From: Geopseudomonas sagittaria
GTDB taxonomy: Bacteria; Pseudomonadota; Gammaproteobacteria; Pseudomonadales; Pseudomonadaceae
Direction: 5' to 3'
Assembly (NCBI RefSeq): GCF_900115715.1
Contig: NZ_FOXM01000022.1
Coordinates: 1-44,858 of the forward strand
DNA: 44,858 nt
Position 1 is the stretch's first letter; each line of letters begins with the position of its first letter. The position numbers were made by a program, and so were the translations under genes. Under the pieces are notes generated by a model. It was not told where the DNA came from. It ran no database searches and saw nothing but the letters and a program-made list of their open reading frames with translations. Positions 19,915-42,128 of the stretch are shown here, piece after piece.

Positions 19915-19978
19915 AGTCATGAAATGAAAAAACGCTGTCGCCGAATGAAAGGTCGACGGCGTTGCGCGCTCATAAATT
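19915..19978 (+). promoter_or_regulatory. AraC-type operator and promoter of the TauD1-BKACE1 unit
   Basis: Half-sites AGTCATGAAATGAAAA (19915) and TGTCGCCGAATGAAAG (19936) are direct repeats with a 21-bp period. A -10-like TAAATT begins at 19973, 37 bp after the start of the second half-site. The second half-site would abut the -35 position, the layout of class II AraC activators. Confidence 0.75.
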
Positions 19979-20030
19979 CTTCCTCACGGCCCGTCCGGCC
20001 GAACGACCTTCGCCTGAGGAGAACAACAAG

Positions 20031-20879
20031 ATGCGCGTAGAACCACTCACCTGCAGTATCGGTGCCGAGCTGATCGGCGTGAACCTCGCCGATGCCGTCC
20101 ACGATGACGGCCTGTTCAACGAGATCAAGGGCCTGCTGCTGCAGAACAAGGTGCTGTTCCTGCGCGATCAGGACATTTCCCGCCCGGACCATGTGGCCTT
20201 CGCCCGCCGCTTCGGCGCGCTGGAGGACCATCCGATGGCGCCGACCCATCCGGAGGCGCCGGGCCTGGTGCAGATCTACAAGCGCCCCGACCAGCCGATC
20301 GACCGCTACGAGAACGCCTGGCACACCGATGGCACCTGGCGCGAGACCCCGGCGCTGGGCTGCGTGCTGCGTTGCGTGGAGTGCCCGCCGGTCGGTGGCG
20401 ACACCATGTGGGCGAACATGGCGCTGGCCTACGAGCGCCTGCCGGTGGAGATCAAGGAGCAGATCGAGGGCCTGCGTGCCAACCACAGCTTCGAGGCGTC
20501 CTTCGCCGCCGCCATGCCGCTCGAGCAGCGTCTGGCAATGAAGGCGCAGTATCCGGACGCCGAGCACCCGGTGGTGCGCACCCACCCGGAAACCGGCGAG
20601 AAGATCCTCTTCGTCAACGCCTTCACCACCCACTTCACCAACTACCACACCAGGGAGCGCGTGCGCTTCGGCCAGGACTACAGCATGGGCGGCAGCGACC
20701 TGCTGCGCTACCTGATCAGCCAGGCGTACATCCCCGAGTACCAGGTGCGCTGGCGCTGGAAGCCGAACAGCATCGCCATCTGGGACAACCGCAGCACCCA
20801 GCACTATGCGGTCATGGACTACCCGGCCTGCCATCGCAAGATGGAGCGCGCGGCCATCGTCGGCGACAAGCCCTTCTGA
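20031..20879 (+). CDS. TauD/TfdA-family 2-oxoglutarate dioxygenase, copy 1
   Basis: 282 aa, typical length. By eye against E. coli TauD, iron ligands are H98 and D100 (AWHTDGTW) and H258 (STQHYAVMDY); R269 and R273 occupy the places of TauD R266 (2-oxoglutarate) and R270 (sulfonate). H67 matches TauD H70, but the TauD Tyr73 position is Ala. The family hydroxylates sulfonates, sulfate esters, phenoxyacids, betaines and others at a carbon next to the leaving group, so the substrate is open. The start ATG 20031 follows GAGGAG. It is cotranscribed with a BKACE gene 46 bp downstream and is very similar to the protein at 23233-24081. Confidence 0.9.
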   Translation: MRVEPLTCSIGAELIGVNLADAVHDDGLFNEIKGLLLQNKVLFLRDQDISRPDHVAFARRFGALEDHPMAPTHPEAPGLVQIYKRPDQPIDRYENAWHTDGTWRETPALGCVLRCVECPPVGGDTMWANMALAYERLPVEIKEQIEGLRANHSFEASFAAAMPLEQRLAMKAQYPDAEHPVVRTHPETGEKILFVNAFTTHFTNYHTRERVRFGQDYSMGGSDLLRYLISQAYIPEYQVRWRWKPNSIAIWDNRSTQHYAVMDYPACHRKMERAAIVGDKPF

Positions 20880-20925
20880 TCATCCTGAACACCACGCACA
20901 ACCCCACCAATTTTAGGAGCACGCC

Positions 20926-21984
20926 ATGAATTTCCTCGATGGGTCCCTGTTCGTCGAAAACATGCAGAAACTGGTCATCACCGCCGCGCCCTACGGCCCG
21001 GAATGGCAGCCGTCCGACTTCCCGGAAGACATTCCGGTATCGCTCGACGCCCAGATCCAGAAGGCCGTTGACTGCTACAACGCCGGCGCCACCGTGCTCC
21101 ACGTGCATGGTCGCGAAGCCGACGGCAAGGGCTCCAAGCGCCTGTCCTTCACCAACCAACTGGTCGCCGGTATCCGCGAAGCCTGCCCGGACATGATCCT
21201 GCAGATCGGCGGCTCGATCTCCTTCGCCCCGGAAAACGACGGCGACGTCGCCAAGTGGCTGTCCGACGACACCCGCCACATGCTCGCCGAGATCAAGCCG
21301 ACCCCGGACCAGGTGACCATCGCTATCAACACCAACCAGATGAACGTGGTCGAGCAGATGTGCGCCGCGGACGTCAAGGGCACCTCGCTGGATGTCGGTA
21401 CCGCCGGCTACGCCGCCTACCGCGAGATGACCATCCCGGCCGGTCCGGAGTGGGTCGAGGAGCACATCAAGCGTTTGTCCGCCAACAAGATCCAGACCCA
21501 CTTCCAGCTGGCCAACATCGCCCAGCTGGAAACCGTCGAGCGCATGATGCGCCGCGGCGTGTGCAACGTGCCGCTGATCCTCACCTGGGTGGCCATCGGC
21601 GGCGGCTTCGAGGCGCCGAACCTCTACAACCTGGCCAACTTCGTGCGTGCCTGCCCGGATGGCTCGGTGCTGACCCTGGAAACCTCCATGCTCAACACCC
21701 TGCCGCTGAACATGATGGCCATGGCCCTGGGCCTGCACGTGCGTTGCGGCATCGAGGACAACATCTGGACCCAGCGCCGCGAGCGCAAGATGACCACCGT
21801 CGAGCAGATTGAGCAGCTGGTGCGCATTTCCCGCGAGTTCGGCCGCGAAATCGCCAACGGCCAGGAGGCTCGCGAGATCTACAGGATCGGCACTTTCTAC
21901 AAGGACGCTGACGAGACCCTGGCCAAGAACGGCTTCGCGCCGAACCGCAAGCCGGGGCAGGTGGGCTTCACCCAGCACGGCTGA
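20926..21984 (+). CDS. Beta-keto acid cleavage enzyme (BKACE), copy 1
   Basis: 352 aa, family DUF849. The zinc-binding signature is HVHGRE (H59, H61) and the third ligand glutamate lies in HVRCGIEDNIW, which matches the GLEDN-type motif of Kce. These enzymes condense a beta-keto acid with acetyl-CoA to give acetoacetate and a new CoA ester. V62 of the usual HxHVRE is Gly here, unlike the second copy (HLHVRE), so substrate choice may differ. The gene ends 39 bp before the first arm of a terminator, so this TauD-BKACE pair forms its own transcript. Confidence 0.9.
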   Translation: MNFLDGSLFVENMQKLVITAAPYGPEWQPSDFPEDIPVSLDAQIQKAVDCYNAGATVLHVHGREADGKGSKRLSFTNQLVAGIREACPDMILQIGGSISFAPENDGDVAKWLSDDTRHMLAEIKPTPDQVTIAINTNQMNVVEQMCAADVKGTSLDVGTAGYAAYREMTIPAGPEWVEEHIKRLSANKIQTHFQLANIAQLETVERMMRRGVCNVPLILTWVAIGGGFEAPNLYNLANFVRACPDGSVLTLETSMLNTLPLNMMAMALGLHVRCGIEDNIWTQRRERKMTTVEQIEQLVRISREFGREIANGQEAREIYRIGTFYKDADETLAKNGFAPNRKPGQVGFTQHG

Positions 21985-22022
21985 TTCCCTGAACGGCCAG
22001 CGCTGAGACTGGCCGGACCTTG

Positions 22023-22086
22023 GCCGGTGCGTGCGCCAGGACCTGCGAGAGACTCGCCGGACCTGCCGCAGGCACCGGCTTTTTTT
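22023..22086 (+). terminator. Terminator after BKACE copy 1
   Basis: Outer stem GCCGGTGC (22023-22030) pairs with GCACCGGC (22072-22079), with further pairing possible inside, followed by seven T's (22080-22086). Confidence 0.75.
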
Positions 22087-22122
22087 CGTCCGGCGCGGCG
22101 CAACGGGTGAATCGACGGCGAC

Positions 22123-22186
22123 TGTCATGAAATGAAAAGTCACTGTCGCCTGATGAGAAGCGCAGGCCGGGGCAACTCCCTAAATT
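22123..22186 (+). promoter_or_regulatory. AraC-type operator and promoter of the quinone oxidoreductase operon
   Basis: Half-sites TGTCATGAAATGAAAAG (22123) and TGTCGCCTGATGAGAAG (22144) repeat at 21 bp. A -10-like TAAATT begins at 22181, exactly 37 bp after the start of the second half-site, as at the other two promoters. Confidence 0.78.
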
Positions 22187-22238
22187 CCCTACAACACGAG
22201 CGGTATTGCTCAACAAGAATGCATTGGGGGAGACAAAC

Positions 22239-23219
22239 ATGGCCAAAGCCGTACGCTTCTATGAAACCGGGGGTCCCGAAGTCCTGCGCTACGAGGAGGT
22301 CGAGGTCGGCGAGCCCGGCCCCGGTCAGGTCCGCCTGCGCCATGTGGCGGTCGGCCTGAACTACGCCGACACCTACTTTCGCAACGGCACCTACCCGATC
22401 CCTCTGCCCAACGGCATGGGCGTGGAAGCGTCCGGCGTGGTCCAGGCGGTGGGCGAGGGTGTGACCAACGTGGCGGTGGGCGATCGCGTCACCTACACCG
22501 GCTTCCTCAACACCCTCGGCGCCTACTCGACCGAGCGCCTGATCCCGGCCGCGCCGCTGATCAAGCTGCCGGAAACCATCGCCTTCGAGACCGCCGCGGC
22601 GATGACCATGCGCGGCCTGACCTCGGCCTACCTGATGCGTCGCATCCACGACTTCAAGGCCGGCGACACCATCCTGCTGCACGCCGCCGCCGGCGGCGTC
22701 GGCCTGATCGTCGCGCAGTGGGCCAAGCTGCTCGGCCTCAACGTGATCGGCACCGTGTCCAGCGACGCCAAGGCCGAAGTGGCCCGCGCCCACGGCTGCG
22801 ACCACACCATCAACTACAGCCACGAGGATGTCGCCAAGCGCGTGCGCGAGCTGACTGATGGCGTGGGCGTCAACGTGGTGTTCGACAGCGTCGGCAAGAG
22901 CACCTTCATGGCCTCGCTGGACTCGCTCAAGCGCCGCGGCCTGCTGGTCTGCGTCGGCACCGCCTCCGGCCCGATCCCGGCCTTCGACCCGGTGCTGCTG
23001 GCGATGAAGGGCTCGCTGTACCTGACCCGTCCGGCGCTGGCCGACTACATCGCCGACCCGGCCGAGAAGGCCGACCTGGCTGGCGAGCTGTTCGACCACG
23101 TCGGCAGCGGCCGCATCAAGATCGAGATCAACCAGCACTACGCCCTGCAGGACGCCGTGCAGGCCCACCGCGACCTGGAGTCGCGCAAGACCACCGGATC
23201 GTCGATCTTCGTCATCTGA
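22239..23219 (+). CDS. NADPH:quinone oxidoreductase-like enzyme (zinc-free MDR family)
   Basis: 326 aa of the medium-chain reductase superfamily, QOR branch. It has VGLNYADTYFRNGTYP with no structural zinc Cys cluster, the nucleotide-binding motif HAAAGGVGLIVAQWAKLLG (AAxGGVG, residues about 149-155), and a final GRIKIEINQHYAL helix-strand. It would reduce quinones or enones with NADPH, and in this setting may process an unsaturated or keto intermediate. ATG 22239 follows GGGGGAGA; the in-frame extension to 22206 has a poor site. It is the first gene of a long operon with TauD2 only 13 bp downstream. Confidence 0.88.
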   Translation: MAKAVRFYETGGPEVLRYEEVEVGEPGPGQVRLRHVAVGLNYADTYFRNGTYPIPLPNGMGVEASGVVQAVGEGVTNVAVGDRVTYTGFLNTLGAYSTERLIPAAPLIKLPETIAFETAAAMTMRGLTSAYLMRRIHDFKAGDTILLHAAAGGVGLIVAQWAKLLGLNVIGTVSSDAKAEVARAHGCDHTINYSHEDVAKRVRELTDGVGVNVVFDSVGKSTFMASLDSLKRRGLLVCVGTASGPIPAFDPVLLAMKGSLYLTRPALADYIADPAEKADLAGELFDHVGSGRIKIEINQHYALQDAVQAHRDLESRKTTGSSIFVI

Positions 23220-23232
23220 GGAGGCCAATGCC

Positions 23233-24081
23233 ATGCAAGTCGAACAACTGACCTGCGCCATCGGCGCCGAGCTGGTCGGCGTCAAGCTGGCCGACGCCAT
23301 CCACGACGACGGCCTGTTCGCCGAGATCCGTGCCCAGCTGCTCAGGCACCGCGTGCTGTTCCTGCGCGACCAGGACATCAGCCGCGCCGAGCACGTGGCC
23401 TTCGCCCGCCGCTTCGGCGAGCTGGAGGATCATCCGGTGGCCGGCAGCGACCCGGAGCATCCGGGCCTGGTGCAGATCTACAAGCGTCCCGACCAGCCGA
23501 TGGACCGCTACGAGAACGCCTGGCACACCGACGCCACCTGGCGCGAGGCGCCGCCGCTGGGCTGCGTGCTGCGCTGCGTGGAGTGCCCGCCGGTGGGCGG
23601 CGACACCATGTGGGCCAACATGGTGCTGGCCTACGACAAGCTGCCGGCCGACGTGAAGGCGAAGATCGAGGGCCTGCGCGCCCGCCACAGCATCGAGGCC
23701 AGCTTCGGTGCGGCCATGCCGATCGACAAGCGCCTGGCGCTCAAGGCCCAGTACCCGGACGCCGAGCACCCGGTGGTGCGCACCCATCCGGAAACCGGCG
23801 AGAAGGTACTGTTCGTCAACGCCTTCACCACCCACTTCAGCAACTACCACACCCCCGAGCGCGTGCGCTTCGGCCAGGACGCCAACCCCGGCGCCAGCGA
23901 GCTGCTGCGCTACCTAGTCAGCCAGGCGTACATCCCCGAGTACCAGGTGCGCTGGCGCTGGCAGCCGAACAGCGTGGCGATCTGGGACAACCGCAGCACC
24001 CAGCACTACGCCGTCATGGACTACCCGGCCTGCCATCGCAAGATGGAGCGCGCCGGGATCATCGGCGACAAGACTTTCTGA
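23233..24081 (+). CDS. TauD/TfdA-family 2-oxoglutarate dioxygenase, copy 2
   Basis: 282 aa, closely similar to the protein at 20031-20879 over its full length with no gaps, so a tandem duplicate. The motifs are at the same positions: AWHTDATW (H98, D100), STQHYAVMDY (H258), R269 and R273, and H67 in LEDHPVAG. The copies differ most around residues 69-77, 135-170 and 215-221, regions that could line the substrate pocket. It sits in a separate operon, directly followed by BKACE copy 2. Translation starts at ATG 23233, 13 bp after the QOR stop. Confidence 0.9.
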   Translation: MQVEQLTCAIGAELVGVKLADAIHDDGLFAEIRAQLLRHRVLFLRDQDISRAEHVAFARRFGELEDHPVAGSDPEHPGLVQIYKRPDQPMDRYENAWHTDATWREAPPLGCVLRCVECPPVGGDTMWANMVLAYDKLPADVKAKIEGLRARHSIEASFGAAMPIDKRLALKAQYPDAEHPVVRTHPETGEKVLFVNAFTTHFSNYHTPERVRFGQDANPGASELLRYLVSQAYIPEYQVRWRWQPNSVAIWDNRSTQHYAVMDYPACHRKMERAGIIGDKTF

Positions 24082-24162
24082 TTCCCCCCCTACGTGCACG
24101 CACCTTGCGCCCGCCGGCTCGCCCCGGCGGGTGGCAACAACAAAAAGACCGAGGACCACAAC

Positions 24163-25215
24163 ATGCAATTCTTCGACGATTCCCTGCACCCCGAAAACAT
24201 GGAGAAGGTGGTCATCACCGTCGCTCCTTACGGCCCGGAGTGGATGCCCGAGGACTTCCCGGAGGACATCCCGCTGACCATGGACGAGCAGGTGCAGAAG
24301 GCCGTCGACTGCTACGAGGCCGGCGCCACAGTGCTGCACCTGCACGTGCGCGAGCTGGACGGCACCGGATCCAAGCGCCTGTCCAAGTTCAACGAGCTGA
24401 TCGCCGGCGTGCGTGAGGCCGTGCCGGACATGATCATCCAGGTCGGCGGCTCGATTTCCTTCGCCCCGGAAGGCGAGGGCGAGGCCGCCAAGTGGCTGAG
24501 CGACGACACCCGCCACATGCTGGCCGAGCTGACCCCGAAGCCGGATCAGGTCACCGTGGCGATCAACACCACCCAGATGAACATCATGGAGCTGCTCTAT
24601 CCGGAATACCTGGAAGGCACCTCCCTGGCCAATCCGGCCTACCAGGCCGCCTACAGCGAGATGACCGTGCCGGCCGGTCCGGCCTGGGTCGCCGAGCACC
24701 TCAAGCGCCTGTGTGCCAACGGCATCCAGCCGCACTTCCAGCTGACCGGCATGCACGCTCTGGAAACCCTCGAGCGCCTGGTGCGCAAGGGCGTCTACAT
24801 GGGCCCGCTGAACCTGACCTGGATCGGCATCGGCGGCGGCTTCGACGGCCCCAACCCGTTCAACTTCTTCAACTTCATCCACCGCGCGCCGGACGGTTGC
24901 ACCCTGACCGCCGAGTCGCTGCTGAAGAACGTGCTGCCGTTCAACATGATGGCCATGGCCATGGGCCTGCACCCGCGTTGCGGCATCGAGGACACCATCG
25001 TCGGCCAGCACGGCCAGCGCATGACCTCGGTCGAGCAGATCCAGCAGTGCGTGCGCGTCGCCCACGAACTGGGCCGCGAAGTGGCCAACGGCAAGCAAGC
25101 GCGCGAGATCTACCGCATCGGCGTGCAGTACGACAGCATCGAGGAAACCCTGCTGGCCAACGGCATGGCGCCGAACCGCAAGGCGGGGCAGAAGGGCGTG
25201 CCGCAGCGCGGCTGA
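24163..25215 (+). CDS. Beta-keto acid cleavage enzyme (BKACE), copy 2
   Basis: 350 aa, paralogue of the protein at 20926-21984, with the full canonical HLHVRE signature (H59, H61, E64) and GIEDTIV for the third ligand. It makes acetoacetate plus an acyl-CoA from a beta-keto acid and acetyl-CoA (family knowledge). The start ATG 24163 has GAGGA 7 bp upstream; an in-frame ATG at 24094 would add a non-conserved tail. The acetoacetate product would be handled by the CoA-transferase encoded 3.6 kb downstream in the same direction. Confidence 0.9.
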   Translation: MQFFDDSLHPENMEKVVITVAPYGPEWMPEDFPEDIPLTMDEQVQKAVDCYEAGATVLHLHVRELDGTGSKRLSKFNELIAGVREAVPDMIIQVGGSISFAPEGEGEAAKWLSDDTRHMLAELTPKPDQVTVAINTTQMNIMELLYPEYLEGTSLANPAYQAAYSEMTVPAGPAWVAEHLKRLCANGIQPHFQLTGMHALETLERLVRKGVYMGPLNLTWIGIGGGFDGPNPFNFFNFIHRAPDGCTLTAESLLKNVLPFNMMAMAMGLHPRCGIEDTIVGQHGQRMTSVEQIQQCVRVAHELGREVANGKQAREIYRIGVQYDSIEETLLANGMAPNRKAGQKGVPQRG

Positions 25216-25274
25216 TCCTGGGAGGGGCGGGGGGCCAGAGGCTTCCCGACCCCTCTACGCTCCATAGAGGTTGC

Positions 25275-25306
25275 GCAAAGGCTTCACCCTGCAGCGAAGC
25301 CTTTGC
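25275..25306 (+). repeat. Perfect 11-bp inverted repeat before the MFS gene
   Basis: GCAAAGGCTTC, a 10-base spacer, then GAAGCCTTTGC. It has no T tract, and a weaker hairpin (GAGGGG/CCCCTC) lies just upstream at about 25221-25257. It may attenuate or stabilise the mRNA between BKACE2 and the MFS gene. Confidence 0.6.
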
Positions 25307-25369
25307 AGAACCCGGTCAGGCATGACCCATAACAATAATTACCTTCGCCAGACAGATAAAGGAGGCAGC

Positions 25370-26701
25370 ATGGCCGCCTACCACCCGACCGCCGATGACG
25401 GCGAAGACACCTCGATCGGCATCCCGCGCCGCTATGCCTGGATCGTCTTCGCCCTGACCTTCGGCCTGCTGATCTCCGACTACATGTCACGGCAGGTGCT
25501 CAACGCCGTGTTCCCCCTGCTGAAGGGCGAGTGGGCACTCTCCGACAGCCAGCTCGGCCTGCTCAGCGGCATAGTCGCGCTGATGGTCGGCCTGCTGACC
25601 TTCCCGCTGTCGCTGCTCGCCGACCGCTTCGGCCGGGTCAAGAGCCTGGCATTCATGGCGGTGCTGTGGAGCCTGGCGACCCTCGGCTGCGCGCTGGCGC
25701 AGGACTACCAGCAGATGTTCGTCGCCCGCTTCCTGGTCGGCGTCGGCGAGGCCGCCTACGGCAGCGTCGGCATCGCCGTGGTGGTCTCGGTGTTCCCCCG
25801 CGAGATGCGCGCCACCCTGTCCGGCGCGTTCATCTCCGGCGGCATGTTCGGCTCGGTGCTGGGCATGGCCCTCGGCGGGGTGATGGCCCAGCACTTCGGC
25901 TGGCGCTGGGCGTTCGCCGGCATGGCGCTGTTCGGCCTGGCCCTGGCGCTGCTCTATCCGGTCATCGTGCGCGAGGCGAAGATCGCCCCCCGGCGGTTGG
26001 CCGACGCCGCCAGCCAGGCGGCCCTCAAGGCCCAGCGCCCGCTGCGCACCCTGTACTCCAGCCGCTCGGTGCTGTCCGCCTACATCGGCAGCGGCCTGCA
26101 GCTGTTCGTCGGCGGCACCGTGATCGTCTGGATGCCCAGCTACCTGAACCGCTACTACGGGATGGGCACCGACAAGGCCGGCGCCGTGTCAGCGATCATC
26201 GTGCTGTGCAGCGGTATTGGCATGGTCCTCTGCGGCATGCTCAGTGACCGCCTGTGCCGCAACCGTCCTGACCGCAAGATCGCCCTGGCCATCGCCTACT
26301 GCCTGGGCAGCTGCCTGCTGCTGTCGCTGGCCTTCGCCCTGCCGGTCGGCTCCGCCCAGCTGGTGATGATCTGCCTGGGCATGCTGATCGCCGCCGGCAC
26401 CTCCGGCCCGGCCGGCGCCATGGTCGCCAACCTGACCCACTACACCGTGCATGGCACCGCGTTCGCCACCCTGACCCTGGCCAACAACCTGCTGGGCCTG
26501 GCCACCGGGCCGCTGATCACCGGCAAGGTGTCCGACCTGATCGGCCTGGACAACGCCTTCCAGCTGGTGCCGCTGGTCAGCATCGCGGCGGCGGCAGTGT
26601 TCTTCTACGCCAAGCGCCACTACCACAACGACATGGCCCGCCTGCAGGGCGAGGGCGTCGAGGAAACCGCCACCGAAGCGGCACTGGAGGCCCAGTCGTG
26701 A
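25370..26701 (+). CDS. MFS transporter
   Basis: 443 aa with about 12 hydrophobic segments. The loop 2-3 signature LADRFGRVKS (about residue 84) identifies the major facilitator superfamily. The N-terminal half contains FLVGVGEAAYGSVGIAVV, resembling the anion/aromatic-acid carrier groups. ATG 25370 is chosen because AAAGGAGG (25358-25365) lies immediately upstream, while an upstream open frame to 25271 runs through an inverted repeat. The stop overlaps the next gene by 4 bp. It probably imports or exports the pathway's substrate or an intermediate. Confidence 0.9.
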   Translation: MAAYHPTADDGEDTSIGIPRRYAWIVFALTFGLLISDYMSRQVLNAVFPLLKGEWALSDSQLGLLSGIVALMVGLLTFPLSLLADRFGRVKSLAFMAVLWSLATLGCALAQDYQQMFVARFLVGVGEAAYGSVGIAVVVSVFPREMRATLSGAFISGGMFGSVLGMALGGVMAQHFGWRWAFAGMALFGLALALLYPVIVREAKIAPRRLADAASQAALKAQRPLRTLYSSRSVLSAYIGSGLQLFVGGTVIVWMPSYLNRYYGMGTDKAGAVSAIIVLCSGIGMVLCGMLSDRLCRNRPDRKIALAIAYCLGSCLLLSLAFALPVGSAQLVMICLGMLIAAGTSGPAGAMVANLTHYTVHGTAFATLTLANNLLGLATGPLITGKVSDLIGLDNAFQLVPLVSIAAAAVFFYAKRHYHNDMARLQGEGVEETATEAALEAQS

Positions 26702-27369
26702 GCCAGCCGCTGCATATCGAGGTGTTCTTCGACTTCATCTGCCCCTGGTGCCTGATCGGCAAGCGCCAGCTGGAGCGCGCGCTGGCCCGTCTGCGCGCCA
26801 CCCGGCCGGATGTCGAGGTCGAACTGGAGTGGCACGGCGTGCAGCTGCTGCCGGACCTGCCGGCCGCGGGCGTGCCGTTCGCCGAGTTCTACCTGCGCCG
26901 CCTCGGCAGCGAGCAGGCCGTGCGCCTGCGCCAGGCCCAGGTGCGCGAGGCGGCCGCCGCCGCCGCCGGGTTGAGCATCGACTTCGCCCGCATCGAGCGG
27001 ATGCCCAACACCGGAGACGCCCATCGCCTGCTCGAGCGCGCCGCCGCCATCGGTAGCCCGGCGCAGGTCGAGGCCCTGCTGGAGCGGTTGTTCGCGGCCT
27101 ATTTCCATAACGGCGAGGATCTCGGCGATCCCGCCACCCTGTTGCTCATCGCCGAAGACTGCGGCTTCGCGCCTGCTGAGCTGGTCGACAACCTGCGCGG
27201 CGATGGCTGGCCCTTCTTCGGCGACGCCGCCGGCATGGCCGGCAATGGCGTGCCCTATTTCGTCTTCGACCGCCACTTGGCGGTATCCGGCTCGCAGTCG
27301 GCCGAGGTGCTGCTCGGCGCCATGCGCGCCGCCCTGGCGCGCCGCGACGCCGAGGGACAGCTGGCATGA
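26698..27369 (+). CDS. DsbA-family thioredoxin-fold protein (FrnE / HCCA-isomerase like)
   Basis: 223 aa. The N-terminal VFFDFICPWCLIGKRQL has a CPWC active site (C15, C18) typical of FrnE-type DsbA proteins. The helical insert and the cis-Pro turn in NGVPYFVFD (about residue 182) follow, with SGSQSAEVLL at the end. No signal peptide, so it acts in the cytoplasm as a disulfide oxidoreductase or, as in related proteins, an isomerase with glutathione. Start GTG 26698 overlaps the MFS stop (GTGA), implying coupling. Its role in this operon is unknown. Confidence 0.85.
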   Translation: MSQPLHIEVFFDFICPWCLIGKRQLERALARLRATRPDVEVELEWHGVQLLPDLPAAGVPFAEFYLRRLGSEQAVRLRQAQVREAAAAAAGLSIDFARIERMPNTGDAHRLLERAAAIGSPAQVEALLERLFAAYFHNGEDLGDPATLLLIAEDCGFAPAELVDNLRGDGWPFFGDAAGMAGNGVPYFVFDRHLAVSGSQSAEVLLGAMRAALARRDAEGQLA

Positions 27370-27692
27370 CCGCTCGCTACGAAGTCCCCGCCGGCAAGGT
27401 GCCGGTCCCCGGTGCGCGCGCGCTGGTCGAATTCGCGGACAAGAGCCTGGCGCTGTTCAACGTCGCCGGCCAGCTCTACGCCATCGACGACGGCTGCCCG
27501 CACCAGGGCGCCTCGCTGTGTGGCGGCCGCCTGGATGGGCGGGTGATCCAGTGCTGCGCCCATGGTCTGCGCTTCGACCTGGTCAGCGGCTACCTACTCA
27601 ATTCGACCGCGCTCAAGGTCGCCAGCTATCCGGTCGAGGTGCAGGACGACCGGGTGTTCATCGTCATCGCTTCCGAGGAGTCCGCGCCATGA
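27366..27692 (+). CDS. Rieske [2Fe-2S] ferredoxin-type protein
   Basis: 108 aa, one Rieske domain with C44-x-H46 (DDGCPHQGAS) and C63-x2-H66 (VIQCCAHG), the full CxH...CxxH ligand set. It is small and soluble, like electron carriers of the NirD or dioxygenase-ferredoxin class. No oxygenase large subunit is nearby, so its partner is unclear. It may serve the nearby reductase or a distant oxygenase. It overlaps both neighbours by 4 bp, so it is tightly coupled to the DsbA-like and YeiH-like genes. Confidence 0.9.
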   Translation: MTARYEVPAGKVPVPGARALVEFADKSLALFNVAGQLYAIDDGCPHQGASLCGGRLDGRVIQCCAHGLRFDLVSGYLLNSTALKVASYPVEVQDDRVFIVIASEESAP

Positions 27693-28699
27693 GCGCCATC
27701 GCTCTCGTCCATGTAAACAGCCGCGTGCGCGAACTGGCGCCGGGCTTCATCGTCAGCCTGATCGCCGCCGCCGCGGCGAGCTTCCTCTCCGAGCACTACG
27801 GCGCGCCGGTGATGCTGTTCGCCCTGCTGCTCGGCATGGCGCTGAACTTCCTCTCCGTGGACGGCAAGTGCAAGGCGGGCATCGAGTTCACCGCGCGCAC
27901 CGTGCTGCGCATCGGCGTGGCCCTGCTAGGCATGCGCATCACCCTGGAGCAGATCGCCGGTCTCGGCTGGAAGCCGGTGGCGTTGGTGGTGATCCTGGTG
28001 GCGGTGACCATCAGCGTGTCGGTGCTGGCGGCCAAGGCGCTCGGCTTCCAGCGCCTGTTCGGCATGCTCACCGGCGGCGCCACCGCCATCTGCGGCGCGT
28101 CGGCCGCGCTGGCGCTGGCCGCCGCGCTGCCCAACCACCCGCAGAAGGAGCGCGCCACCCTGTTCACCGTGATCGGCGTGTCGGCGCTGTCCACCCTGGC
28201 GATGATCCTCTACCCGATGATCGCCAACTGGTTCGCCCTGTCGCCGCAGGCCGCCGGGGTGTTCCTCGGCGCCACCATCCACGACGTCGCCCAGGTGGTC
28301 GGCGCCGGTTACAGCATGTCCCCGGAGACCGGCGACACCGCCACCGTGGTCAAGCTGATGCGCGTGGCCATGCTGCTGCCGGTGATCGTCACCGCCGCGA
28401 TGATCACCCGCATGCAGGGCGCCGACCCCACCGGCAAGCGCCCGCCGCTGCTGCCCTGGTTCGCCGTCGGCTTCCTGATCCTCGCCTGCGTCAACAGCAC
28501 CGGCTGGGTGCCGGCGGCGGTGCAGGGCGGAGTCAACGAGCTGTCGCGCTGGTGCCTGGTCGTCTCGATCAGCGCGCTGGGCATGAAGACCCAGCTCAAG
28601 GAGCTGGCCTCGGTGGGCATCAAGCCGATCCTGCTGATGGTCGGCGAGACCGCCTTCCTGGTCGCGCTGGTATTGGCGCTGATGCACTGGGTCCTGTGA
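27689..28699 (+). CDS. YeiH-type integral membrane protein (putative sulfate exporter family)
   Basis: 336 aa with about ten membrane segments. Family markers are the LRIGVALLGMRIT segment (residues about 71-83), FGMLTGGATAICGASAALA (about 125-143) and GATIHDVAQVVGAGYSMS (about 193-210). The family is annotated as putative sulfate exporters on weak evidence. Next to TauD-type genes, it raises the idea of removing sulfite or sulfate released from a sulfonate, but other anions are possible. It starts at ATG 27689, with a 4-bp overlap with the Rieske gene. Confidence 0.85.
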   Translation: MSAIALVHVNSRVRELAPGFIVSLIAAAAASFLSEHYGAPVMLFALLLGMALNFLSVDGKCKAGIEFTARTVLRIGVALLGMRITLEQIAGLGWKPVALVVILVAVTISVSVLAAKALGFQRLFGMLTGGATAICGASAALALAAALPNHPQKERATLFTVIGVSALSTLAMILYPMIANWFALSPQAAGVFLGATIHDVAQVVGAGYSMSPETGDTATVVKLMRVAMLLPVIVTAAMITRMQGADPTGKRPPLLPWFAVGFLILACVNSTGWVPAAVQGGVNELSRWCLVVSISALGMKTQLKELASVGIKPILLMVGETAFLVALVLALMHWVL

Positions 28700-28712
28700 T
28701 CGCAGGGACGTC

Positions 28713-28769
28713 GTAGAGGCGAATTCATTCGCCTTGACGGGGCATGTTGGCGAATGAATTCGCCCCTAC
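28713..28769. repeat. REP-like inverted repeat pair
   Basis: GTAGAGGCGAATTCATTCGCC (28713-28733) and its near-perfect complement (28749-28769, one mismatch) flank a 15-bp spacer. Each arm is itself nearly palindromic around GGCGAATTCATTCGCC. It resembles the repetitive extragenic palindromes of Pseudomonas and sits between the YeiH-like and scoA genes. Confidence 0.75.
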
Positions 28770-28815
28770 AGAGAGTTCCCAGGCTGCGGGTAATCAACAA
28801 GAAAGAGACGATGCG

Positions 28816-29526
28816 ATGAACAAGCTTTATCCCAACTCCTACGCCGCCCTCGACGGGCTGGTCGAGGACGGCATCACCCTGGCGGTCGGCGGCTTCGGCC
28901 TGTGCGGCATTCCCGAAGCGCTGATCGAGGCGCTGCGCGAGACCGGCAAGCGCGGCTTCACCGTCATCAGCAACAACTGCGGGGTGGACGACTTCGGCCT
29001 CGGTCCGCTGCTGTACAGCCGGCAGATCGCCAAGATGATTTCCTCCTACGTGGGCGGCAACAAGGAGTTCGAGCGCCAGTACCTGGCCGGCGAGCTGGAG
29101 CTGGAATTCACCCCGCAGGGCACCCTGGCCGAGAAGCTGCGCGCCGGCGGCGCCGGCATCCCGGCGTTCTTCACCAAGACCGGCTACGGCACCCTGGTCG
29201 CCGAGGGCAAGGAAACCCGCGAGTTCGACGGCGAGTGGTACGTCATGGAGCGCGCGCTGACCGCCGATGTGGCGCTGATCAAGGGCGCCAAGGCCGACAA
29301 GGCCGGCAACCTGGTGTTCGACAAGACCGCGCGCAACTTCAACCCGCTGTGCGCCAAGGCCGGCCAGGTGTGCATCGCCGAGGTGGAGGAGATCGTCGAG
29401 ATCGGCGAACTGGACCCGGACCAGATCCACCTGCCGGGTATCTACGTGCAGCGCCTGGTGCTCAATGCCAACCCGGAAAAACGCATCGAAGTCCGCACGC
29501 TTTCCAAACCGGCAGAGGGGAACTGA
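28816..29526 (+). CDS. scoA: 3-ketoacid CoA-transferase subunit A
   Basis: 236 aa, the alpha subunit of a two-subunit succinyl-CoA:3-ketoacid CoA-transferase (family I). Motifs are [17 protein letters not shown] (residues about 23-39), [34 protein letters not shown] and [20 protein letters not shown]. It activates acetoacetate (or 3-oxoadipate in paralogues) with succinyl-CoA. Placed after two BKACE genes, the likely substrate is the acetoacetate they release. ATG 28816 is used; an upstream extension would run into the REP-like repeat. The beta subunit follows 2 bp later. Confidence 0.92.
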
Positions 29527-29528
29527 AC

Positions 29529-30158
<630 letters not shown>

Positions 30159-30351
30159 TCAGTCAGCCAACCAGTCCCGTTTCACCTGCTTTCCACGGTG
30201 GCGCCCGCCTCGGGCGCTGCCGGGAAACCAACCGCTCGCCCGGCCGCGCCGCGTGGCCGGCGGGCGGCTGCCCTGGCGCAATGCCAGGCACTGCCGATCA
30301 ACGGATCGGCCGCATGACCTGAGATAACAACAAGACCAGAGGGTAGGGACG

Positions 30352-31104
30352 ATGCGAGCGAAATCATTGCTGTGTGTACTGTTTCTACTGTGTTCGCCGG
30401 TCGGGGCCGACGAGCGCAGCGCCCTGCAGTTGAGCGAGCTGGACAGCCGCAGCCAACTGCTGTGTGCCAGCGCCATGCTCTACTTCAACCCCAAGGAGCG
30501 AACGCCCGACCCGCGCCTGCTGACCTCGGTATTCCATCACCTGCAGACGCTGGAGACCGCCGTCCAGCAGCTCGGCCAGCCGGCCGTACTGGCGCAACCG
30601 CTGGGCGAGATGAAGAAGGTGTTCGCCGAGCTGGACGGCCTGCCACCGGCAGACAAGCAGCGCTATCCGGCGCTGATCCAGCAGTTGCTGGCCCACCAGT
30701 TGCAACTGCAGCAGGCCGCCGCAGCAGCCTACGCCGGTGAGCAGCGCAACCTGACCGGCGAGGCGGCGTCGCCGCTGCTCAGCGAGCAGAGCCGCGCCCT
30801 GGCCAGCTTCCTGCTGGATTACCAGCTGCGCCACTACCCGTTGCCGGGCAAGGAGCAGCTGGTCATGACGTCAGCGCGCCTGCAGGCGCTCGACCAGACC
30901 ATCGAGGCCCGTTTCGCCGCGCTGCTGGCGCAGCACGCCGAGCATGCGGTTGCGCTGAGCAAGATCCACGGCAACTACCAGTTCGTGCGCGGCCAGCTGC
31001 AGCAGGACGGCAAGCGTGGCCACGGTGGCGCCGAGTTCTACCTCAGTCGCGCGGTGACCGATCTCGACGAGCTGGCGCTGACGGTCGTGCAGAACAGCCG
31101 CTGA
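30352..31104 (+). CDS. Secreted, mostly helical protein of unknown function
   Basis: 250 aa. A signal peptide (residues about 1-20, LLCVLFLLCSPVGA) is followed by an Ala/Leu/Gln-rich helical body with coiled-coil-like stretches (about 65-135) and no Cys after the signal region except one near residue 38. No family is recognised. The start ATG 30352 follows GAGGGTAGGG. It is 193 bp from scoB and converges on araC, so it may be an independent gene. A periplasmic role is likely but unproven. Confidence 0.75.
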   Translation: MRAKSLLCVLFLLCSPVGADERSALQLSELDSRSQLLCASAMLYFNPKERTPDPRLLTSVFHHLQTLETAVQQLGQPAVLAQPLGEMKKVFAELDGLPPADKQRYPALIQQLLAHQLQLQQAAAAAYAGEQRNLTGEAASPLLSEQSRALASFLLDYQLRHYPLPGKEQLVMTSARLQALDQTIEARFAALLAQHAEHAVALSKIHGNYQFVRGQLQQDGKRGHGGAEFYLSRAVTDLDELALTVVQNSR

Positions 31105-31191
31105 TCCCGCCGACTCCCCGCCAGCCAGCGCGGCTGGTGGGCCTGTGGCGCGTGGAGCCTCGCCGCGGCGAGGACCATCCGGCCTTGCCGC

Positions 31192-32211
31192 TCAGCGTTC
31201 CTTGCGCGGCACGATGTTGTGCTCGGCGCGCCAGGCCGCCGGCGGCATGCCGAACTGGGAGATGAACCAGCGGGTGAAGGAGCTGGGCATCGAGTAGCCG
31301 AGCATGTCGGCGATGCGCCCCAGCGAGTAGCCCGGGTTCTCCAGATAGCGGATCACCAGGTCGCGGCGCACGCCGTTGATCAACTCGCTGAAGGTGGCGC
31401 CGCCTTCCTCCAGGCGGCGCTGCAGGGTGCGTACGTTCATCCCCAGGCTCTCGGCGATCTGCTCGATGGTCGCGCGGCCCATCGGCAGCAGCAGGTAGAT
31501 GGTCTTGCGCACGTCGAACACCACCGAATGCTCGCCTGCGGTCTGCAGCGAGTCCAGGTAGCGCTGCGCGTGGCGCGCCATGGCGGCGTTGGCCAGCGGG
31601 TTGGCGGTGTCCAGATCGGCGGCAGGGCAGACGATGCCGTTGAACTCGCTGCCGAACTCCAGTTTGCAGCCGAAGATGCGCCGGTGCACGGTCAGGTCGG
31701 CTGGCGCTTCGTGGGTGAAGTTCACGCTGAGCGGATGCCAGTGCGCGCCAAGCAGGGCGGCGCAGAAGCGATGCATCACGGCGACCGCCAGCTCGATGGC
31801 CTGGCGGCTGTGCGCCGGCCGGTCGGTGACCACTTCCTCGCGGATGATCACCGTCTTGCCGGCCTCCTCGATGTGGATCGCCAGCGACTCGTTGAGCAGG
31901 TGGCGGTACTGGACGATCACCTGCAGGGCGTCGCGCAGGGTGCGCTGGTGGCTGAGCAGCAGGCTGATCTCGCCGAAGTCCGACAGCTGGCGCAGTTCGG
32001 CCATGCGCAGGCCGAAGGTTTCGCAGCCGCTGACGCGCGCCGACTCCTCGAGCAGGCTGACCGCCGCGGCAACCGGGATGCGCTTATTGGGATCGTCCAG
32101 CTGCGAGACGCTGAGACCCGCCTGCGAGAGCAGACTCTGGCCGTTCAGGCCCAGGTGGCGGGCGACTTCCAGGTAGTTGGTGAGCACGGCGGCGCGGGCG
32201 AGGGCGGTCAT
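31192..32211 (-). CDS. AraC-family regulator (Arabinose_bd N-domain type)
   Basis: 339 aa, the size of the OruR/ArgR-like group, with an N-terminal ligand domain (ARAAVLTNYLEVARHLGL near the start, LLSHQRTLRDALQVIVQYRH near 90) and two C-terminal helix-turn-helix units (IEQIAESLGMNVRTLQRRL and LGRIADMLGYSMPSSFTRWF). Such proteins bind two direct half-sites about two helical turns apart and activate catabolic operons. The same 21-bp-spaced sites occur at three nearby promoters. ATG 32211 with GGGA upstream is preferred; ATG 32226 lacks a ribosome site. Confidence 0.9.
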   Translation of the reverse strand: MTALARAAVLTNYLEVARHLGLNGQSLLSQAGLSVSQLDDPNKRIPVAAAVSLLEESARVSGCETFGLRMAELRQLSDFGEISLLLSHQRTLRDALQVIVQYRHLLNESLAIHIEEAGKTVIIREEVVTDRPAHSRQAIELAVAVMHRFCAALLGAHWHPLSVNFTHEAPADLTVHRRIFGCKLEFGSEFNGIVCPAADLDTANPLANAAMARHAQRYLDSLQTAGEHSVVFDVRKTIYLLLPMGRATIEQIAESLGMNVRTLQRRLEEGGATFSELINGVRRDLVIRYLENPGYSLGRIADMLGYSMPSSFTRWFISQFGMPPAAWRAEHNIVPRKER

Positions 32212-32279
32212 CTTGTTGTTTCCCATGCTTTGTCAAATGGCGTCCCGCTACGCTGGCGGGGCCTCACTTATAGCCTTGG

Positions 32280-32296
32280 CGTCACGAAATGAAAAG
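32280..32296 (+). promoter_or_regulatory. Lone AraC-type half-site near the araC promoter
   Basis: CGTCACGAAATGAAAAG matches the first half-site of the three full operators, but no partner is found 21 bp on. It lies 65 bp before the full site at 32345 and 69 bp from the araC start, where it could mediate autoregulation or DNA looping. Confidence 0.5.
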
Positions 32297-32344
32297 CCAT
32301 CCGCTGTCCAGCTCCCTGGCAGGCCCCCGCCAGTGGGGCAGCGC

Positions 32345-32408
32345 TGTCATCAAATGAAAAGTGCCTGACGCGCAATGTAAAGCGACCGGGGGGAGGGCTC
32401 TTTACTGT
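32345..32408 (+). promoter_or_regulatory. AraC-type operator and promoter of the hydrolase/DUF1302 operon
   Basis: Half-sites TGTCATCAAATGAAAAG (32345) and TGACGCGCAATGTAAAG (32366) repeat at 21 bp. A -10-like TACTGT starts at 32403, again 37 bp after the start of the second half-site. The downstream gene starts at 32465. Confidence 0.72.
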
Positions 32409-32464: not shown

Positions 32465-33076
32465 GTGGAAAAACTGCAAACCGCCGCTACCGTCCTGATC
32501 GTTCCCGGCCTGCGCGACCACGTTGCCGAGCATTGGCAGACGCTGCTGGAGGCCCGCCTGGCCAAGGTCCGCTCGGTGCCGCCGCTGCAGACCGACAAGC
32601 TCAGCTGCGTCGCGCGGGTCGAGGCGATCCAGCGCGAACTGGCGCAGATCGACGGTCCGGTGATCCTAGTGGCGCACAGCGCCGGCGTGTTGATGGTAGC
32701 CCACTGGGCCGCCCGCCATCGCCACGACATCAAGGGCGCCCTGTTGGCCGCGCCGCCGGATCTCGAGGCCGCCTGGCCCGAAGGCTACCCGACACCGGAC
32801 ACCCTGCGCGCCAACGGCTGGGACCCGCTGCCGAGCGGCCCGCTGCCGTTCCCCAGCCTGGTCGCGGCCAGCAGCAACGACCATCTGGCCAGTCTCGAGG
32901 CGGTCGCCCGCATGGCCGACGGCTGGGGCAGCCAGCTGGTCAATGTCGGCGCGGTCGGCCACCTCAATCCGGCTGCCGGCTACGGCCCCTGGCCGCAGGC
33001 AGAAGAATTCATCGAAGTGCTGGATCGCCAGGAGGGGAGTTGCCCGGCAACCCTTTCCGCCGCAATCGGCCGCTGA
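32465..33076 (+). CDS. Alpha/beta hydrolase, RBBP9/YdeN-like
   Basis: 203 aa, a short serine hydrolase. IVPGLRDHVAEHWQTLLE near the start is the RBBP9-type entry. The nucleophile is Ser in LVAHSAGVLMVAH (residue about 70), with Asp in SSNDHLAS (about 139) and His in VGHLNPAAGYG (about 163). The start is GTG 32465, the first usable start after the AraC-type operator. No signal peptide, so it is cytoplasmic; it may cleave an ester or thioester intermediate. It is the first gene of a long plus-strand operon. Confidence 0.85.
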   Translation: MEKLQTAATVLIVPGLRDHVAEHWQTLLEARLAKVRSVPPLQTDKLSCVARVEAIQRELAQIDGPVILVAHSAGVLMVAHWAARHRHDIKGALLAAPPDLEAAWPEGYPTPDTLRANGWDPLPSGPLPFPSLVAASSNDHLASLEAVARMADGWGSQLVNVGAVGHLNPAAGYGPWPQAEEFIEVLDRQEGSCPATLSAAIGR

Positions 33077-33125
33077 ATTGCCAACACCAACGTTAACAAC
33101 AATAAAAATAAGCGGAGATAACGCA

Positions 33126-35081: not shown

Positions 35082-35121
35082 TTCGCGTGTTTCTCAGCCT
35101 TTGAGCAGGAAAACAATAATT

Positions 35122-36480
35122 ATGAAATTCGTGCATACCCTGATCGCTGCTTCCCTTGCCCTGGCCATCGCCGGCCAGGCCCACGCTGCCGTATCCGCTG
35201 GCGAAGCCGCCAAGCTCGGCACCAGCCTGACCAAGGTCGGCGCCGATGCGGCCGCCAGCGCCGATGGCGCCATTCCGGCCTACAAGGGCGGTTTGACCAC
35301 CCCGCCGGCCGGCTTCAAGAACGGCGATAGCGTGCGCCCCGATCCCTTCGCCGGCGAGAAGCCGCTGCTGAGCATCGACGGCAAGAACGTCGACCAGTAC
35401 AAGGACCAGCTGACCGCCACCACCATCGAGCTGGCCAAGCGCTTCCCGACCTTCCGCGTCGATGTCTATCCGACCCACCGCTCGGTGGCGCTGCCGCAGG
35501 CGGTGCTCGACAACACCCTGAAGAACGCCGTCAACGCCCAGTCCAAGGAAGGTGGCAGCGCGGTGGACAACGTGCTGCCGGGCATTCCGTTCCCGATCCC
35601 GAAGACCGGTGCCGAAGCGATGTGGAACTTCCTGCTGCGCTACCAGGGCGTGAGCATCTCCTCCAAGTACGACTCCTGGAACGTCGACGCCGCGGGCAAG
35701 CCGACCCTGTCCACCACCGGCCAGGCGCACATCAGCTACCCGATCTACGAGGACCTGTCCAAGCCGATCGGCGCCAAGGACACCTACTACCAGATGAAGC
35801 TGGCCTACACCGCGCCGGCCCGCCGCGCCGGCGAGGCGATCATGCTGCGTGACGCCGCCAACCCGCTGGTGCAGCCGCGCAGCGCCTGGCAATACCTGCC
35901 GGGCCAGCGCCGCGTGAAGCTGGCGCCCAACCTGGCCTACGACACCCCGAACCCGGGCACCTCCGGCTCCGGCACCTACGACGACGTGTTCGTCTTCAAC
36001 GGTGCGCTGGACCGCTACGACTGGACCCTGGTCGGCAAGAAGGAGATGTACGTCCCGTACAACACCTACCAGCTGACCTACGCCAAGGATCCCAAGCAGC
36101 TGACCACGCCGAATCATCTGTCGCCCGACTTCGTGCGCTGGGAGAAGCATCGCGTGTGGGTCGTCGAGGGCAAGCTGAAGTCCGGTGCGCGGCACATCTA
36201 CCACAAGCGCCGCTTCTTCCTGGACGAGGACAGCTGGGTCGCCCTGGCTTCCGACCAGTATGACGCCCGTGGCCAGCTGTATCGCGGCTCCTTCGCCTTC
36301 CTGACCCAGAGCTATGACAAGCAGACCCCGGATGCCACCCCGTTCATGATCTACGACCTGATCGGCGGCACCTACAACATCAACGGCGTGGTCGGCCCTT
36401 ACGGCGGTATCCGCTACATCGAGCCGCTGTCCAAGACCCAGTGGTCGCCGGAGTCCCTGGCCGGCGCCGGTATCCGCTAA
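35122..36480 (+). CDS. DUF1329 periplasmic protein (LolA/LolB-like fold)
   Basis: 452 aa with a signal peptide ending GQAHAA (residue about 21). Conserved DUF1329 features are GGLTTPPAGFKNG (about 54), the central WQYLPGQRRVKLAPNLAYD (about 256) and the C-terminal GPYGGIRYIEP. The family resembles outer-membrane lipoprotein-sorting proteins and may carry lipid-like molecules across the periplasm. It is 40 bp after the DUF1302 gene, in a conserved pair. The start ATG 35122 lies after AGGA. Confidence 0.9.
   Translation: MKFVHTLIAASLALAIAGQAHAAVSAGEAAKLGTSLTKVGADAAASADGAIPAYKGGLTTPPAGFKNGDSVRPDPFAGEKPLLSIDGKNVDQYKDQLTATTIELAKRFPTFRVDVYPTHRSVALPQAVLDNTLKNAVNAQSKEGGSAVDNVLPGIPFPIPKTGAEAMWNFLLRYQGVSISSKYDSWNVDAAGKPTLSTTGQAHISYPIYEDLSKPIGAKDTYYQMKLAYTAPARRAGEAIMLRDAANPLVQPRSAWQYLPGQRRVKLAPNLAYDTPNPGTSGSGTYDDVFVFNGALDRYDWTLVGKKEMYVPYNTYQLTYAKDPKQLTTPNHLSPDFVRWEKHRVWVVEGKLKSGARHIYHKRRFFLDEDSWVALASDQYDARGQLYRGSFAFLTQSYDKQTPDATPFMIYDLIGGTYNINGVVGPYGGIRYIEPLSKTQWSPESLAGAGIR

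Positions 36481-40349: not shown

Positions 40350-42128
<1,779 letters not shown>

What the first reader, a model, noticed from the sequence alone, without database searches (positions are those of the whole stretch)
19915..32408. One operator with 21-bp direct repeats at three promoters defines an AraC-family regulon
The sequence shows paired half-sites (TGTC-N5-AATGAAAAG-like) starting at 19915/19936, 22123/22144 and 32345/32366, each exactly 21 bp apart. In each case a -10-like hexamer (TAAATT, TAAATT, TACTGT) begins exactly 37 bp after the start of the second half-site. The AraC-type gene (31192-32211) lies next to the third. Class II AraC activators with two HTH units recognise this kind of two-turn direct repeat. 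The constant geometry over 12 kb makes chance unlikely and links the two TauD-BKACE units and the envelope/acyl-CoA operon into one regulon.
Basis: partly seen in the sequence, partly recalled or inferred. Interest (0 to 1): 0.82.

Follow-up and report, generated by a model that had tools for sequence, protein, structure and literature searches.

The report
Shared switch for an uncharacterised Pseudomonas pathway
A repeated DNA control site next to a regulator gene marks, in this bacterium and its relatives, the promoters of a conserved set of breakdown, transport, storage and chemotaxis genes of unknown substrate, so one regulator probably switches them on together.

Summary
Three tandem operators, (TGTC-N4-AATGAAAAG)x2 with a 21-bp period, lie at 19915, 22123 and 32345, each with a -10 hexamer 58 bp from its first base; 0.00 are expected by chance in the window. 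The half-site gap is N4, not N5. Of 80 loci fetched by the regulator, 79 carry the operator. All 144 sites scoring 30 or more there precede a gene of the cluster, and 139 of 146 have TAnnnT at exactly +58, with a poor -35, as in an activator-dependent class II promoter. Among 298 family genomes the regulator, the BKACE gene and the operator share the same 57; 2 others have a site only. Sites also precede PHA synthase (a fourth site in this genome), acyl-CoA ligase and chemoreceptor genes, and occur in Beta- and Alphaproteobacteria. A lone half-site over the regulator's own promoter, present in 40 of 80 loci, suggests autoregulation. The mechanism is a known XylS/ArgR-like kind; the regulon and its substrate appear uncharacterised in the papers I could search. 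Binding, activation and inducer are inferred.

The parts
19915..19952 (+). Operator 1: half-sites 19915-19931 and 19936-19952; -10 TAAATT at 19973-19978; in front of TauD1-BKACE1
   Evidence: E 3.0e-10
22123..22160 (+). Operator 2: half-sites 22123-22139 and 22144-22160; -10 TAAATT at 22181-22186; in front of the QOR-TauD2-BKACE2-MFS-DsbA-Rieske-YeiH-ScoAB unit
   Evidence: E 2.0e-15
32345..32382 (+). Operator 3: half-sites 32345-32361 and 32366-32382; -10 TACTGT at 32403-32408; in front of the hydrolase-DUF1302-DUF1329-BNR-MMPL-acyl-CoA dehydrogenase unit
   Evidence: E 5.4e-15
32280..32296 (+). Lone half-site CGTCACGAAATGAAAAG, reversed with respect to the regulator gene; covers the -35 position and part of the spacer of the regulator's promoter; probable autoregulatory site
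   Evidence: 40 of 80 loci have one; TATA at +24 in 37 of the 40
32267..32272 (-). Predicted -10 hexamer TATAAG of the regulator's own promoter
   Evidence: sequence
31192..32211 (-). AraC/XylS-family regulator, 339 aa (PF12625 + HTH_18)
20031..20879 (+). TauD1, Fe(II)/2-oxoglutarate dioxygenase family
20926..21984 (+). BKACE1, beta-keto acid cleavage enzyme family
22022..22087 (+). Strong hairpin followed by a T-run: probable terminator of unit 1, just before operator 2
   Evidence: -45.4 kcal/mol, z -6.63 for 22018-22092; not listed by the simple scan, whose loop limit is 8
22239..23219 (+). NADPH:quinone reductase-like zinc-type dehydrogenase (QOR)
23233..24081 (+). TauD2
24163..25215 (+). 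BKACE2 (start inferred from relatives; longest ORF from 24094)
25271..26701 (+). MFS transporter (start uncertain)
26698..27369 (+). DsbA-like thioredoxin-fold protein
27366..27692 (+). Small Rieske [2Fe-2S] protein
27689..28699 (+). YeiH-type putative sulfate exporter (PF03601)
   Evidence: 248 bits, cut-off 24.5; TIGR00698 172.4 bits, below its cut-off of 232.6, on a longer ORF that includes it
28744..29526 (+). 3-oxoacid CoA-transferase subunit A (ScoA)
29529..30158 (+). CoA-transferase subunit B (ScoB)
32465..33076 (+). Serine hydrolase (PF06821), first gene after operator 3
32943..35081 (+). DUF1302 protein (start uncertain)
35101..36480 (+). DUF1329 protein (start uncertain)
36441..37679 (+). 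YCF48/BNR-repeat protein (start uncertain)
37713..40271 (+). MMPL/RND-type transporter
40350..42128 (+). Acyl-CoA dehydrogenase
42209..43870 (+). AMP-forming acyl-CoA ligase; its ortholog has its own operator in sister genomes, not here

Best explanation
The three sites are the operators of the AraC/XylS-type regulator at 31192-32211. Two regulator monomers bind head to tail, one per 17-bp half-site, each placing its two helix-turn-helix units on TGTC and on AATGAAAAG. The downstream half-site ends where the -35 element should be, and that position has no TTGACA-like sequence, so transcription from the fixed -10 needs the bound activator (class II). On an inducer, probably the substrate or an intermediate of the pathway, the regulator switches on the TauD1-BKACE1 unit, the QOR-TauD2-BKACE2-MFS-exporter-CoA-transferase unit and the envelope/acyl-CoA unit; a distant phaC gene in this genome and, in relatives, acyl-CoA ligase and chemoreceptor genes also have the site. 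A lone reversed half-site over the -35 region of the regulator's own promoter probably damps its expression. Shown by sequence and comparison: sites, geometry, conservation, co-occurrence. Inferred: binding, activation, autorepression, inducer, pathway chemistry.
For: Three composite hits in the window against 0.00 expected. 79 of 80 loci fetched by the regulator carry a site. All 144 sites scoring at least 30 in those 80 loci precede a reference gene of the cluster: 79 serine hydrolase, 57 QOR, 5 MCP, 2 MFS, 1 TauD1. Spacing test from 10 to 40 bp: 135 half-site pairs at 21, none at any other spacing up to 32, 14 in all at 33 to 40. TAnnnT at +58 in 139 of 146 sites, at +59 in 4; these sites were chosen by the half-sites alone. 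The hexamer at +35 to +40 matches TTGACA at 1 base in 129 and 2 bases in 17 of 146. 57 of 57 family genomes with the regulator have a site against 2 of 241 without. In the first set of 56 relatives, 10 of 10 genomes with an ortholog of 69% identity or more have sites; of the other 46 none has one below E 1e-4, and 5 have weak matches at E 0.02 to 0.1. The stretches NVRTLQRRL and SFTRWF, which I take to be the two recognition helices, are invariant in 24 of 24 aligned sequences (window and 23 of the 80 loci). In plasmid loci of Beta- and Alphaproteobacteria with 43-60% regulators, 8 sites (7 distinct sequences) were found in 7 loci against a mean of 0.05 in 20 resamples. A terminator-like hairpin separates unit 1 from operator 2.
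Against: No binding, footprint, transcription-start or mutant data. Regulator and BKACE occur in exactly the same 57 genomes, so co-occurrence cannot separate regulator from target as the reason for the site. Genomes are related, so counts are not independent events. Two of 241 genomes without the regulator have a match: G274 (E 3.2e-8, no reference gene downstream) and G105 (E 5.8e-4, place not looked at). One of 80 loci (L074, a second regulator copy) has no site. C. metallidurans (L191, 45% regulator) has the genes nearby but no site by my criteria. Of 46 sites scoring 24 or more in the extra loci L146-L184, 6 have no reference gene downstream (L160, L161, L170, L173, L174, L176), although those loci were chosen for their model hits. 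In 7 of 146 sites the -10 is not at +58.
Confidence: 0.88

Rival explanations
1. The sites are real class II operators but are bound by another PF12625/AraC paralog (for example an ArgR-, OruR- or PhbR-like protein), and the adjacent regulator is coincidental.
For: This genome has 5 matches to the regulator at E<=0.001, itself included, and the ARG box TGTCGCN6GNAA is also tandem with 5 bp between, hence a 21-bp period (PMC10963909, passages), so related proteins use similar sites.
Against: Site presence follows the adjacent ortholog in 57 of 57 family genomes, and 239 of 241 genomes without it lack the site; in the 56-genome set many of the latter do have other paralogs. The G at ARG-box position 13 is absent from all six tandem half-sites of the window (read). 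The regulator's own promoter carries a matching half-site.
Confidence: 0.07
2. The tandem sites mediate repression: the bound protein blocks RNA polymerase, and an inducer releases it.
For: The proximal half-site reaches the -35 position; a lone half-site lies over the regulator's own promoter.
Against: The tandem promoters lack a TTGACA-like -35 (1-2 of 6 matches in 146 of 146 sites), so they would be weak without help, whereas the regulator promoter has TATAAG and TTTTCA. The distance from half-site to -10 is fixed, as expected of class II activation.
Confidence: 0.06
3. Chance recurrence, or sequence kept only because the loci diverged recently.
For: The 80 loci are all from Pseudomonas and share ancestry.
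Against: 0.00 expected in the window; columns outside the half-sites and -10 are mostly variable while half-site columns are near invariant; the site is kept where the phaC target stands at another place than in sister genomes and in other classes of bacteria.
Confidence: 0.01

Closest known systems
XylS at the Pm promoter (Pseudomonas putida TOL plasmid)
   Same: AraC/XylS activator; two homologous 15-bp direct repeats, each a box A and a box B, with the proximal site filled first (PMC5481539, passages). That the proximal repeat overlaps the -35 and that the period is 21 bp is recalled
   Different: Boxes are TGCA-N6-GGTA there, TGTC-N4-AATGAAAAG here; regulon and inducer differ; the two regulators' sequences were not compared here
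ArgR of Pseudomonas and its ARG box
   Same: TGTCGCN6GNAA repeated in tandem with 5 bp between, hence 21-bp period (PMC10963909, passages); 2 of 3 downstream half-sites in the window begin TGTCGC
   Different: G at position 13 is absent from all six half-sites here; the genes behind the sites are not arginine genes; the protein sequences were not compared here
PhbR of Azotobacter vinelandii and Pseudomonas sp. 61-3
   Same: AraC/XylS activator that binds a couple of almost identical 18-bp sites and activates PHB genes; phbR expression depends on PhbR itself (PMC7204398, passages)
   Different: phbR lies beside phbBAC and PhbR activates its own gene; here the regulator lies in a TauD-BKACE cluster and the site is in front of a second phaC gene; site and protein sequences were not compared
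VirS of Mycobacterium tuberculosis
   Same: Best solved-structure relative, aligned over residues 3-331 (8rcx, E 3e-29; the organism is recalled)
   Different: Targets differ; operator not compared; papers seen only as a search listing
AmeABCD of Castellaniella defragrans
   Same: DUF1302 outer-membrane, DUF1329 periplasmic and RND inner-membrane proteins together (PMC6394551, passages), as in the envelope unit
   Different: There tied to monoterpene metabolism; the term AraC does not occur in that paper's main text

Membership tests
AraC/XylS family regulator (PF12625 branch) | PF12625 N-terminal domain and AraC-type HTH domain above Pfam cut-offs | tested here: met
   PF12625 172 bits (cut-off 27.6), HTH_18 64 bits (33.6)
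AraC/XylS class II activator | Tandem direct-repeat operator whose proximal half reaches the -35 position, with a poor -35 and a fixed -10 | tested here: met
   (sequence geometry only)
AraC/XylS class II activator | Direct binding and activation | not testable with these tools
   needs gel shift, footprint and reporter assays
ArgR / ARG box | Half-site consensus TGTCGCN6GNAA | tested here: not met
   G at position 13 absent from 6 of 6 window half-sites
QhpR (NF049968) | Score above the curated cut-off | tested here: not met
   204.2 bits against 250
GliR (NF050186) | Score above the curated cut-off | tested here: not met
   150.3 bits against 570
PhbR | Gene divergent from and next to phbBAC | tested here: not met
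   the phbBAC-like genes of this genome lie on contig 22 (L169), the regulator on contig 28; no sequence comparison with PhbR was made

The most novel reading that the evidence does not exclude
The regulon runs an undescribed proteobacterial pathway for amphiphilic organosulfur acids (sulfonates or sulfate esters at the beta position): import through the DUF1302/DUF1329/MMPL or TonB route, oxidative removal of the sulfo group by TauD to give a beta-keto acid, export of the sulfur oxyanion by the YeiH-type exporter, BKACE cleavage and CoA transfer to acetoacetyl-CoA, and banking of C4 units as PHB through a co-regulated PhaC, with a chemoreceptor steering cells to the substrate.
Probability: 0.2. 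Interest if true: 0.75.

Novelty: new member of a known kind. Interest (0 to 1): 0.55.

Why it matters
It gives a well-bounded, testable regulon for a regulator and a set of enzymes (two TauD, two BKACE, CoA-transferase, exporter, envelope transporter) whose substrate I did not find described in the papers I could search. One inducer screen with a reporter on any of these promoters could identify the substrate. The site also ties a PHA synthase and, in relatives, a chemoreceptor to a catabolic pathway, and is a compact AraC-type promoter with strict geometry that could serve as an expression tool.

Tried and rejected
The first genome pattern used a wrong half-site spacing and found nothing; corrected. 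Chance and mere recent ancestry were rejected. ArgR, QhpR and GliR identity were rejected. The lone half-site was first read as a remnant of a chemoreceptor operator, because in five loci (L035, L036, L041, L050, L075) an MCP operator sits at about that place. A lone half-site is counted in 40 of 80 loci, with TATA at a fixed distance in 37 of them, which favours an autoregulatory site; one of the 40, L075, is in fact such an MCP operator with a weak second half. The simple terminator scan missed the hairpin before operator 2; folding found it. Rfam (gathering threshold) and tRNA scans of the window were empty. Literature: of 9 searches, five aimed at this regulon or its operator and four at related regulators; no listed title or abstract start describes this regulator, operator or TauD-BKACE unit. 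One search listed only 12 of 87 papers; several listed papers holding some of the terms were not opened (for example PMC10673610); the library lacks most subscription journals. Structure prediction was not run. Gene calls come from my own rough script; some starts are uncertain, and it works poorly on the lower-GC loci. The flanking window ORFs 8686-9456, 9488-10558, 15626-19327 and 19355-19810 were never scanned, because the calls that held them failed.
Full report
What was claimed.

Check of the observation. The sequence has half-sites at 19915/19936, 22123/22144 and 32345/32366. The half-site is TGTC-N4-AATGAAAAG (17 bp), not N5, and the two halves are 21 bp apart. The half-site alone at up to 3 mismatches gives 10 hits in the window against a shuffle mean of 3.26; the 38-bp composite gives exactly the three sites against 0.00 in 100 shuffles. 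The hexamers TAAATT, TAAATT and TACTGT start 58 bp after the first base of each site.

Surroundings. The adjacent gene is an AraC/XylS protein with a PF12625 domain and an AraC-type HTH domain; the best solved relative is VirS. Unit 1 is TauD1-BKACE1. A stretch folding at -45.4 kcal/mol, with a run of T at its end, closes it just before operator 2, which would explain why a second operator is needed. Unit 2 is QOR-TauD2-BKACE2-MFS-DsbA-Rieske-YeiH-type exporter-CoA-transferase A and B. Operator 3 precedes a serine hydrolase, DUF1302, DUF1329, a BNR protein, MMPL and an acyl-CoA dehydrogenase, followed by an AMP-forming acyl-CoA ligase. TauD1 is closest to the solved chain 5vn6 (E 2.8e-151) and aligns with taurine dioxygenase 3pvj through the HTD, QH and C-terminal R motifs (the role of those residues is recalled).

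Conservation. One scan of genome contigs with the regulator kept the best 80 of 115 loci, all Pseudomonas. 79 of 80 have a tandem site on the divergent side of the regulator gene; the exception, L074, is a second regulator copy. Half-site pairs counted by spacing from 10 to 40: 135 at 21 bp, none at other spacings up to 32, and 14 in all at 33 to 40; I take most of the latter, 11 at 37 to 38, to be pairs of a lone half-site with a tandem site. Columns within the half-sites are near invariant, columns between the operator and the -10 mostly are not (149 sites, the three of the window included). Sites chosen by the half-sites alone have TAnnnT at +58 in 139 of 146 and at +59 in 4; the hexamer at the -35 position matches TTGACA in 1 base (129) or 2 bases (17). 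With a score cut-off of 30, 144 sites were found in the 80 loci; the first reference gene downstream was the serine hydrolase (79), QOR (57), MCP (5), MFS (2) or TauD1 (1), and none lacked one.

Genome-wide. A sequence-only profile of 25 chosen sites finds in this genome the three window sites (E 2.0e-15, 5.4e-15, 3.0e-10) and then four weak hits from E 0.286 to 1.2. One of them (E 1.2) ends 74 bp before a match to PHA synthase; reading that stretch shows a degenerate but complete operator with TAGATT at +58 (L166). One is the lone half-site. For the other two no site scored 18 or more in the fetched stretches (L167, L168). In 56 relatives, the 10 genomes with an ortholog of 69% identity or more have sites; of the other 46 none has a match below E 1e-4, and 5 have weak ones at E 0.02 to 0.1. 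In 298 family genomes the regulator (E<=1e-60) is in 57, BKACE (E<=1e-100) in the same 57, and sites (E<=0.001) in those 57 plus G105 and G274. Because regulator and target share one distribution, this does not by itself prove that the regulator binds the site, and the genomes are related.

Wider regulon. I fetched further stretches around model hits and scored them: 46 sites of 24 or more in L146-L184, of which 40 precede a reference gene. Besides the known promoters these are acyl-CoA ligase (L147, L150, L151, L154, L180, L184), PHA synthase (L148, L149, L152, L153, L155, L157, L166, L175, L177, L178, L183), PAS-type chemoreceptor (L156, L159, L171), a DUF1329-like gene (L182) and a TauD-BKACE pair elsewhere (L165). 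Six sites (L160, L161, L170, L173, L174, L176) have no reference gene downstream; the gene after the L176 site is a chemoreceptor of another type. Among the eight genus genomes searched, a phaC of 83% identity or more to that of L148 is present in the six with the regulator and absent from the two without. The ligase operator is missing in the window: the gap before the ligase is 80 bp here and 296 bp in L147.

Beyond Pseudomonas. A plasmid search gave 21 records with a relative at E<=1e-40; I fetched 7 of the 10 listed. 8 sites were found in them (two are the same sequence) against a mean of 0.05, at most 1, in 20 resamples. Six of the eight precede QOR, BKACE, the hydrolase or, by annotation, a TonB receptor; the Azoarcus site lies between the regulator and an acyl-CoA dehydratase activase gene; one L188 site has no such gene. 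C. metallidurans (L191) had none. The Novosphingobium sp. ES2-1 plasmid carries a compact version: AraC, then QOR-TauD-BKACE-hydrolase-MFS-putative sulfate exporter-TonB receptor, with two sites.

Autoregulation. A lone reversed half-site with up to 2 mismatches lies upstream of the regulator in 40 of 80 loci, in 27 of them 68-73 bp from the start of the match, and TATA follows at a fixed distance in 37 of the 40. In the window it covers the -35 position (TTTTCA) of that promoter. Binding there would most simply block transcription; this step is inferred.

Mechanism. The layout resembles XylS at Pm, where each 15-bp repeat carries two boxes for the two HTHs of one monomer (PMC5481539, passages), and the tandem ARG box (PMC10963909, passages). 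The stretches I take to be the recognition helices are invariant in 24 of 24 aligned sequences. I therefore hold that two monomers on the tandem site recruit RNA polymerase to a promoter without a good -35 element.

What the pathway does. BKACE enzymes convert a beta-keto acid and acetyl-CoA to acetoacetate and an acyl-CoA (recalled), a 3-oxoacid CoA-transferase would then make acetoacetyl-CoA, and PhaC could store it after reduction; this chain fits the regulon but is inferred. The DUF1302/DUF1329/RND set matches AmeABCD of a monoterpene degrader (PMC6394551, passages). TauD together with a putative sulfate exporter, both also in the Novosphingobium unit, hints at a sulfur-containing substrate. 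The substrate is not established.

Verdict. A real, conserved operator and a regulon of known mechanistic kind with an apparently undescribed regulator and pathway, as far as five aimed literature searches in the held library can tell (listings only).

Noticed in passing
window 42129-42208: The acyl-CoA ligase gene has its own operator in sister genomes (for example L147:9943), but the window's gap is about 216 bp shorter and lacks it; a TTCACA-18-TAGAGT promoter-like site is present at 42165 (2 such sites found against 1.0 expected in that stretch).
   Followed up: partly
window 30352-31104: A 250-aa protein with no Pfam match; relatives at 50-62% are found in the stretches that hold chemoreceptor genes or sites in L156, L160 and L171.
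   Followed up: no
L166:5828 (G000 contig 30): Fourth, degenerate operator before a phaC gene in this genome; two genes further on lie relatives of DUF1329 (37%) and DUF1302 (27%).
   Followed up: partly
L171:14206-16128: In G183 a PHA synthase-like gene (69% to that of G017) lies in the run of cluster genes, between the exporter and CoA-transferase genes.
   Followed up: no
L170:9981 (G274): Good operator match in a genome without the regulator or BKACE; no reference gene found downstream; unexplained.
   Followed up: partly
sites, position +48: A G is kept in 115 of 146 distinct sites 10 bp upstream of the -10 hexamer; no explanation.
   Followed up: no
window 14766-15389 (-): ORF with an eCIS core domain (PF13699), next to a 1233-aa ORF at 15626-19327 (-) that was not scanned.
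   Followed up: no
L193 (Novosphingobium sp. ES2-1 plasmid p2): Compact version of the gene set on a plasmid typed as conjugative, with a TonB receptor and without hits to the DUF1302 set.
   Followed up: yes
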